NCBI GenBank assembly: GCA_028284905.1
Contig: JANQQU010000093.1
Span: 1 to 64,000 of the forward strand
DNA: 64,000 nucleotides
Reading direction: 5' to 3'
Source: Calditrichia bacterium
GTDB taxonomy: Bacteria; Calditrichota; Calditrichia; RBG-13-44-9; J075
Both the position numbers and the translations under genes were made by a program. Below the pieces are notes generated by a model. It searched no databases and was not told where the DNA came from. It saw only the letters and a program-made list of their open reading frames with translations. This document shows, piece after piece, positions 42,900-43,802 of this stretch. How positions within the stretch are numbered: the first letter of the stretch is position 1; each line of letters begins with the position of its first letter.

Positions 42900-42939
42900 A
42901 ACAAAAAAGCTTTCTGGAATTCTGGAAAGCTTTTTTGTT
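42900..42939. terminator. Terminator between AKR and DUF3179 genes
   Basis: The arms AACAAAAAAGCTTTC (42900-42914) and 42925-42939 are perfect complements with a 10-base loop. T-runs face both ways, so it can serve the converging genes. Confidence 0.85.
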
Positions 42940-42976: not shown

Positions 42977-43669
42977 TTATTCAATATGCAGAAAACGACT
43001 ATCCGGATTTTCCTGAAACCAGGTATTCCAACGCGTAAATTCCGATGCGAATTCCGACAATTTTTGGTCTTTGTAGAACCCACCGATGCAGGTGAGGCCA
43101 TCGGTCCCATCCAGATGATACCACAAACTTTCCGTTTCCCAATCATAAAGCACAAATGTGTCCCGATAGGTCCAGCCACTGGCGCTTAATGTTAATGATC
43201 GTCCATCTATTTCCCGACTGTACACGGCAGCCAATTGAACAAGCGGTCAGTAAGCGATAGCGACGTGAGTTGTATCGAAAAATTCATTCACGATTTCATT
43301 TGTTTTCAAAATGTAGATCGGGTATGCCCGGCGATCATCATTAATTTCCGTACCGATAACCAGGAAGTTTTGATTAGCCGAAGGAAATCCCGGTTCTCCC
43401 GCGGAGACCATTTCAAAATCATTAATAGGGCGAATGGCATCCGGACCCAGGCCAAATTGGAAACCATTCTCATTAAAACCATAGTTCCTTACGGCATGAG
43501 AAATATCCCATTCCTTACCGGTGCGATCGACGATAACGATCGGCTCGTTTGATGGCGGACCGGTAACATCGCCACCATCGCCTCCACCGGGATTATTTCC
43601 TCCGCTATTGCTGCACGCGGTGAGAATAAATCCCAGCAGCAAAACTGTTACGATATATAAAATTCTCAT
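42977..43669 (-). CDS. DUF3179 lipoprotein with in-frame UGA, probable selenoprotein
   Basis: The two halves 43247-43669 and 42977-43246 lie in one frame, separated only by TGA at 43249-43247. Read through, this gives 230 residues: lipoprotein signal with LTAC (Cys 19), a Gly-rich linker, NDDRRAYPIYILKTNEIVNEF, then AY-UGA-PLV at residue 141, then SREIDGRSLTLSASGWTYRD and YDWETESLWYHLDGT. These segments match DUF3179 on both sides of the UGA. In that family the motif is normally YCPL, so the UGA replaces the conserved Cys. A weak stem-loop (GGCUG/CAGUC, 7-base loop) lies about 19 nt downstream. The alternative is a nonsense mutation. Confidence 0.7.
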
Positions 43670-43802
43670 TCCTGCTCCTTGTGCTCTACGAATTTCTGCG
43701 CAATGTTCTTTAATCTGAAATTGCGATTGTTAACCGAAACATAAAACCCGAATTCGTAATGAACTGTAAGCTTTCCCACATTAGGCCTCCATCCCTGGAA
43801 AG

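What the first reader, a model, noticed from the sequence alone, without database searches (positions are those of the whole stretch)
42977..43669. In-frame UGA at the conserved cysteine of a DUF3179 protein: likely selenocysteine
The frame before and after TGA (43249-43247) is the same and both parts match DUF3179. The UGA stands exactly where the family has Cys in YCPL. A weak stem-loop with a G in its loop lies at the usual distance for a bacterial SECIS element. Selenocysteine is the economical reading; I believe some database names mark DUF3179 members as (seleno)proteins but could not check it here.
Basis: partly seen in the sequence, partly recalled or inferred. Interest (0 to 1): 0.72.

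Follow-up and report, generated by a model that had tools for sequence, protein, structure and literature searches.

The report
Selenocysteine codon in a DUF3179 lipoprotein
A stop-like UGA in this bacterial gene is almost certainly read as the rare amino acid selenocysteine, in a small, apparently lipid-anchored member of a protein family that was already known to include selenoproteins.

Summary
TGA 43249-43247 (- strand) is in frame in a DUF3179 gene (43669-42977); each side hits PF11376 alone, and the UGA sits where the family has Cys. The genome carries selA, selB, selD (itself with an in-frame UGA) and a tRNA-Sec. Relatives settle it: 63 other copies from Calditrichota, KSB1 and one Acidobacteriota genome have UGA at the same codon. 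An RNA hairpin 18-34 nt from the UGA, usually with loop CGUGU, is kept by paired base changes and exceeds synonymous recoding (155 of 186 pairs against 100.7 +/- 5.0; second phylum 167 of 198 against 114.8 +/- 4.9). In Calditrichota, UGA copies go with selA (12 of 13 genomes; 0 of 7 with only Cys copies). DUF3179 is already listed as a selenoprotein family (UxxC/T). This copy departs from that entry: it is one module of a family that I find to be an internal duplication, has Val at +3, and looks like a lipoprotein. Its biochemical function is inferred, not shown.

The parts
42977..43669 (-). DUF3179 selenoprotein gene, 230 codons plus stop, one DUF3179 module
   Evidence: translation; PF11376 105.2 bits over residues 87-227
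43247..43249 (-). in-frame UGA, codon 141, read as selenocysteine
   Evidence: aligned with Cys of relatives and with UGA of 63 other copies
43216..43232 (-). SECIS-like hairpin, nt 18-34 from the U of UGA; stem GGCUG/CAGUC, loop CCGUGUA
43613..43669 (-). predicted lipoprotein signal peptide with lipobox LTAC, lipidated Cys19
   Evidence: sequence; lipobox-like motif by rule in 31 of 41 one-module copies
43088..43090 (-). Cys194 codon, possible resolving partner of Sec141
   Evidence: Cys in 33 of 41 one-module copies
43675..43680 (-). AAGGAG, ribosome-binding-site-like, 5 nt before the ATG
   Evidence: read by eye
42903..42936 (.). near-palindromic hairpin with T run after the gene, possible terminator shared with the facing aldo/keto reductase gene
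   Evidence: read by eye; the terminator scan, which allows loops of 3-8 only, did not list it

Best explanation
The gene encodes a selenoprotein. Decoding: a SECIS hairpin right after the UGA recruits SelB with Sec-tRNA-Sec, so the ribosome inserts Sec141 and goes on to UAA, giving a 230-aa precursor (strongly supported by comparison; insertion itself not observed). The product is a predicted lipoprotein with one DUF3179 module, so the selenol faces the cell envelope (inferred from the signal sequence). Most likely function, inferred only (about 0.35): an envelope oxidoreductase in which the selenol of YUPL attacks a peroxide, thiol or disulfide, is resolved by Cys194 or an outside thiol, and is recharged by an envelope thioredoxin-like protein.
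For: Both sides of the UGA belong to one PF11376 domain. UGA is at the codon of the conserved Cys in 64 distinct copies from Calditrichota, KSB1 and one Acidobacteriota genome; 18 Calditrichota copies and one KSB1 one-module copy (L171) have Cys there. selA, selB, selD and tRNA-Sec are present; selD itself has a UGA. UGA copies go with selA: 12 of 13 genomes against 0 of 7 with only Cys copies. Hairpin kept beyond the protein code: 155 of 186 pairs against 100.7 +/- 5.0 for synonymous recoding, repeated in KSB1 with 167 of 198 against 114.8 +/- 4.9; covariation score 0.342 against 0.165 in shuffles, 0 of 500 as high. For the redox idea: second Cys in 33 of 41, and a thioredoxin-like gene (WCLPC) some genes away on the same strand in G016, with like genes in G014 and G015.
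Against: No direct evidence of Sec insertion. Energy of the single hairpin is not special. In this copy the loop is formally 7 nt with the G third, which misses one rule of the published bSECIS model. G036 has a UGA copy but no selA or tRNA-Sec was found, only a SelB-like gene cut by a contig edge and just under its cut-off. Copies are related, so counts are not independent events. For the function: Cys194 is missing in 8 of 41; the thioredoxin-like neighbour is absent here; the nearly invariant His before Glu (HE) is Asn in this copy.
Confidence: 0.95

Rival explanations
1. Pseudogene or assembly error: the UGA is a real stop, or a miscalled Cys codon, and the gene is broken.
For: The genome is a draft in 93 contigs; a lone UGA always allows this.
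Against: 64 distinct copies in many genomes share the UGA at one codon with intact frames on both sides, and three of four copies in this genome have it.
Confidence: 0.01
2. UGA is read through as another amino acid (such as Trp, or by stop-codon reassignment) or by leaky termination, without selenium.
For: An open frame beyond UGA alone cannot tell Sec from other readings.
Against: The UGA replaces a conserved Cys, which is the Sec pattern; a tRNA-Sec, selA, selB and selD are present; UGA copies go with selA; a UGA-anchored hairpin is conserved. Several one-module copies end at a UGA as their own stop, so UGA is not generally a sense codon.
Confidence: 0.03
3. The module is a degenerate Rieske-like domain: the Sec/Cys sits at the place of Rieske box II (CPxHG), and the protein binds a metal or is an electron-transfer protein instead of a thiol-type enzyme.
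For: The best second-look fold matches are NirD small subunits (4aiv Z 4.5, rmsd 4.0, 95 aligned; 3c0d Z 4.2, rmsd 4.1, 91 aligned) and several Rieske oxygenases, over model residues 92-204, which include the Sec site.
Against: Z under 5 on a model of pLDDT 70.9; Foldseek gave no match at E <= 0.001; profile comparison with 20 Rieske sequences gave probability under 0.5%.
Confidence: 0.1

Closest known systems
DUF3179 (PF11376) selenoproteins in the tables of PMC9312934 and PMC13188914, where the source cited is Zhang and Gladyshev 2007 (Olavius algarvensis symbiont; reference 60 of PMC13188914)
   Same: Same Pfam family, Sec at the conserved Cys of the family.
   Different: The tables give the motif as UxxC/T; this copy has UPLV, is a single module covering profile positions 12-147 of 292, and looks like a lipoprotein. 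Whether the tabled examples are full length was not seen.
Two-module Sec DUF3179 copies of the same phyla (UPLA and UPLC types, such as L002 and L047)
   Same: UGA at the same codon, hairpin at the same place.
   Different: Full-length two-module proteins; separate branches of the tree.
Cys DUF3179 proteins (CPLC, CPLT, CTLC)
   Same: Same family, Cys at the Sec position.
   Different: Two modules in the 18 Calditrichota copies; 0-3 of 6 hairpin pairs; found alone in genomes without selA, and beside Sec copies in four UGA genomes (G000, G006, G011, G015).
Bacterial SECIS model (PMC13188914, Fig 2 legend)
   Same: Small loop, short stem, 16-37 nt from the UGA.
   Different: In this copy G is third in a 7-nt loop unless the C-A next to the stem counts as closed; the usual loop here is CGUGU.

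Membership tests
Bacterial selenoprotein gene | in-frame UGA with homologous coding sequence on both sides | tested here: met
   both halves hit PF11376 on their own
Bacterial selenoprotein gene | UGA aligned with a conserved Cys of homologues (Sec/Cys pair) | tested here: met
   27 UGA, 18 Cys, 1 Ser among 46 Calditrichota copies with the site; a one-module Cys copy in KSB1 (L171)
Bacterial selenoprotein gene | Sec machinery in the same genome | tested here: met
   tRNA-Sec, selA, selB, selD
Bacterial selenoprotein gene | UGA-containing homologues in other organisms | tested here: met
   12 other Calditrichota genomes, 17 KSB1 genomes, one Acidobacteriota record
Bacterial selenoprotein gene | selenium present in the protein | not testable with these tools
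   needs mass spectrometry or selenium labelling
bSECIS model (PMC13188914, Fig 2 legend) | apical loop of 3-9 nt and upper stem of 4-16 bp | tested here: met
   7-nt loop, 6-7 bp in the fold of this copy
bSECIS model (PMC13188914, Fig 2 legend) | G in the first two loop positions | tested here: inconclusive
   third in the 7-nt loop of this copy; second in the 5-nt loop of the copies with the U-A closing pair, 27 of 64
bSECIS model (PMC13188914, Fig 2 legend) | 16-37 nt between UGA and apical loop | tested here: met
   19 nt
bSECIS model (PMC13188914, Fig 2 legend) | minimum free energy of -7.5 kcal/mol or lower | tested here: inconclusive
   -10.4 for the 48 nt from the UGA on, -5.3 for the hairpin alone
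DUF3179 (PF11376) | score over the gathering cut-off | tested here: met
   105.2 bits against 27
DUF3179 (PF11376) | full-length two-module profile | tested here: not met
   profile 12-147 of 292 only; the profile's two halves are homologous
Published DUF3179 selenoprotein entry | UxxC/T motif | tested here: not met
   UPLV here; C or T at +3 in 9 of 64 UGA copies
Rieske-like fold | fold match and profile similarity | tested here: inconclusive
   Z 4.5 at best; hhalign probability under 0.5%

The most novel reading that the evidence does not exclude
The one-module DUF3179 lipoproteins are a selenoprotein subfamily of their own: nearly always Sec (42 of 44 copies seen), multi-copy in the envelopes of Calditrichota and KSB1, having dropped the +3 Cys/Thr and taken up a distant Cys (Cys194) as resolving partner, with a shared SECIS loop CGUGU that points to a SelB preference common to these phyla.
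Probability: 0.45. Interest if true: 0.5.

Novelty: new variant of a known kind. Interest (0 to 1): 0.4.

Why it matters
A gene finder using the ordinary code would end this gene at the UGA (as the ORF list does) and split it in two. The family is abundant in little-studied phyla, so recognising the one-module Sec form corrects many gene models. It also gives a clean comparative case of a SECIS kept by compensatory change inside a coding region, with a defined loop to test on SelB. DUF3179 has no known function, and the Sec points to redox chemistry at YUPL.

Tried and rejected
Energy of the single hairpin: no signal. Rfam near the gene: 15 weak matches, none near its gathering score, none a SECIS. 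NCBIfam: no model matches. Solved structures by sequence: none. Foldseek: no match at E <= 0.001. Rieske idea: not backed by profiles (20 of 30 Rieske loci kept, two long-branch DUF3179 rows dropped). Viral contigs: 190 pattern matches, no relative. Gene neighbours: no partner common to all; dihydrouridine-synthase-like, beta-barrel-like and thioredoxin-like neighbours recur in 3 genomes each (the first two names are my reading of the sequences, only the thioredoxin-like one and its G016 neighbours were scanned). G027's TGA lies at the edge of the match, outside the domain.

Rows dropped before counts: the partial G035 copy; the divergent UVVC copy of G006 from the alignment (it is; read by eye, its hairpin is one base further on with loop AGUUU); one copy cut by a contig end (G113:C328) from the 41. 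Of the KSB1 places I read 37 closely (36 with UGA, one with Cys); the site residue of the other places there was not examined.

Full report
Observation. The - strand gene 43669-42977 is one frame of 230 codons with a single TGA at 43249-43247, codon 141. The 140 residues before it and the 89 after it each hit PF11376 (1.7e-7 and 3e-13), and the joined protein scores 5.8e-30, 105.2 bits against a cut-off of 27. The residues are IAYUPLVQLAAVYSRE.

Machinery. The window lies in an 8.55 Mb draft genome of 93 contigs. It holds selA (531.6 bits; two pieces that end at contig ends of C46 and C28), selB (332.7 bits, 349.5 with its neighbour in the frame), selD (388.6 bits with one in-frame TGA at VTCAGU) and a tRNA-Sec (73 bits; ARAGORN: TCA anticodon).

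Organism. G006 (same family) and G031 (same order) have contigs whose lengths equal those of named Calditrichota records (322,006 and 20,497 bases), so I place the window genome in Calditrichota. Its own name is not known to me.

Relatives in the phylum. Of 40 genomes, 21 have DUF3179, 47 matches in all. Reading each (Cys and Ser sites): 27 have TGA at the codon of the conserved Cys, 18 have Cys, one has Ser, and one is a fragment without the site. The TGA genomes are 13; selA passes its cut-off in 12. The exception, G036, shows a SelB-like gene cut by a contig edge (230.4 bits, cut-off 242.25), but no tRNA-Sec was found (its best hit is a tRNA-Ser). A strong tRNA-Sec hit is present in 10 of the 13 (missing in G016, G018, G036). 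Seven genomes have only Cys copies; none has selA over the cut-off, though G020 has a tRNA-Sec (71.5 bits). Fisher p is 1e-4, but 6 of those 7 belong to one family, so these are not independent events. selB was sought only in G000, G036 and three genomes behind named loci.

Other phyla. Named relatives with TGA come from KSB1 (L070, L073, L074) and an Acidobacteriota record (L075). In the phylum of G041 (KSB1), 25 of 82 genomes have DUF3179. Of 37 places I read there, 36 have TGA at the same column (17 genomes) and one, L171, has Cys. Three of the 36 repeat L070, L073 and L074. Distinct TGA copies number 64 in all.

SECIS. Counting from the U of UGA, nt 18-23 face nt 29-34 around a loop at 24-28, without gaps. 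Loops: CGUGU 58, AGUUU 3, AGUCU 1, CAGUU 1, CGUGA 1 of 64. Over 31 copies 155 of 186 positions pair; 2000 synonymous recodings give 100.7 +/- 5.0, maximum 117; 18 Cys copies have 0-3 of 6. The hairpin was fixed before I looked at the KSB1 copies; the 33 new ones give 167 of 198 against 114.8 +/- 4.9, maximum 129. Taking each distinct stem once (31), 156 of 186 against 114.9 +/- 4.5. Sixty of 64 copies have at least 5 of 6 pairs, one has 4. On 29 distinct rows, 4 of 6 pairs show changes on both sides (49 of 500 shuffles reach 4 as well); 17 such cells against 5.4 in shuffles and a covariation score of 0.342 against 0.165 (0 of 500 for both); slid structures reach at most 0.175. One pair links the first base of the Ala/Thr codon at +6 with the silent third base of the Ser codon at +10: G-C 23, A-U 9, G-U 6, A-C 2. 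Recoding and shuffles do not remove shared ancestry, so the numbers overstate independence. The single sequence folds no better than shuffles. The selD UGA of this genome is followed, by eye, by AGGUC-CGGGU-GACCU, a like hairpin.

Protein. The two halves of full-length DUF3179 match each other (hhalign 98.8%, E 1.2e-16; reversed control 0.4%), and the one-module Sec copies match the first half at 100%. So the family is a tandem duplication and this gene is the one-module form. The one-module clade has support 100/99 (21 Sec, one Ser); six UPLA two-module Sec copies form another clade (100/99); the Cys copies lie on one side of a branch with weak support 74/77. Over the phyla 42 of 44 one-module copies have UGA (my tally). 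The +3 residue is V 27, A 13, I 8, C 6, E 5, T 3, R 1, K 1 of 64, so most lack the UxxC/T motif. A second Cys, 194 here, is present in 33 of 41. A lipobox-like motif is found in 31 of 41 by rule. In this copy the His of the nearly invariant HE is Asn. The AlphaFold model is moderate (pLDDT 70.9, pTM 0.65). Its best matches are weak and Rieske-like and are not backed by profiles.

Literature. DUF3179 is in the selenoprotein tables of PMC9312934 and PMC13188914 as UxxC/T (passages seen). PMC13188914's reference 60 is Zhang and Gladyshev 2007 (reference seen; paper not held). The KSB1 paper PMC9012183 reports selA, selB and selD and says selC is absent; it does not mention DUF3179 (passages). Searches for DUF3179, Calditrichota or Caldithrix with selenoprotein and KSB1 with selenocysteine listed no report of the one-module form; of the papers listed I looked into the two reviews, the KSB1 paper, PMC5029168 and, from other searches, PMC8318568 and PMC12013277. 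Only open-licence papers were searched. That RefSeq names use '(seleno)protein' for this family is recalled, not checked.

Verdict. Selenocysteine at codon 141: 0.95. It is a new variant of a known selenoprotein family, not a new kind. The envelope-redox function is an inference at about 0.35.

Noticed in passing
L023 (G000:C21:22816-23739, - strand): selD of the same genome has an in-frame UGA (VTCAGU) followed, by eye, by a hairpin with loop CGGGU, close to the DUF3179 loop CGUGU.
   Followed up: partly
L067 (G006:C6:314919-317546); L065 (G031:C115); L176 (G110:C14): One-module copies stand in tandem. In G006 three lie side by side: two keep UGA, the third has Ser at the site and is divergent.
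   Followed up: partly
L171 (G068:C359:54121-54618): A one-module DUF3179 with Cys (YCILADLGG) and only 1 of 6 hairpin pairs; the rows listed for that genome show no UGA.
   Followed up: partly
L095:880-8519 (G016); similar in L092 (G014) and L094 (G015): The Sec gene starts a same-strand run with a PEGA/Omp28 protein, two secretion-tail proteins, a thioredoxin-like protein with WCLPC and a DUF6029 protein.
   Followed up: partly
alignment A4 (two-module DUF3179): Full-length DUF3179 is an internal tandem duplication; only the first module carries the Cys/Sec.
   Followed up: yes
G020: A tRNA-Sec hit of 71.5 bits but no selA over the cut-off and no UGA DUF3179 copy: a lost pathway or a gap in the assembly.
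   Followed up: no
KSB1 genomes and PMC9012183: The paper says selC is absent from KSB1, yet UGA DUF3179 copies abound there and selB passes its cut-off in G040 and G041; tRNA-Sec may have been missed. Not tested in KSB1 here.
   Followed up: no
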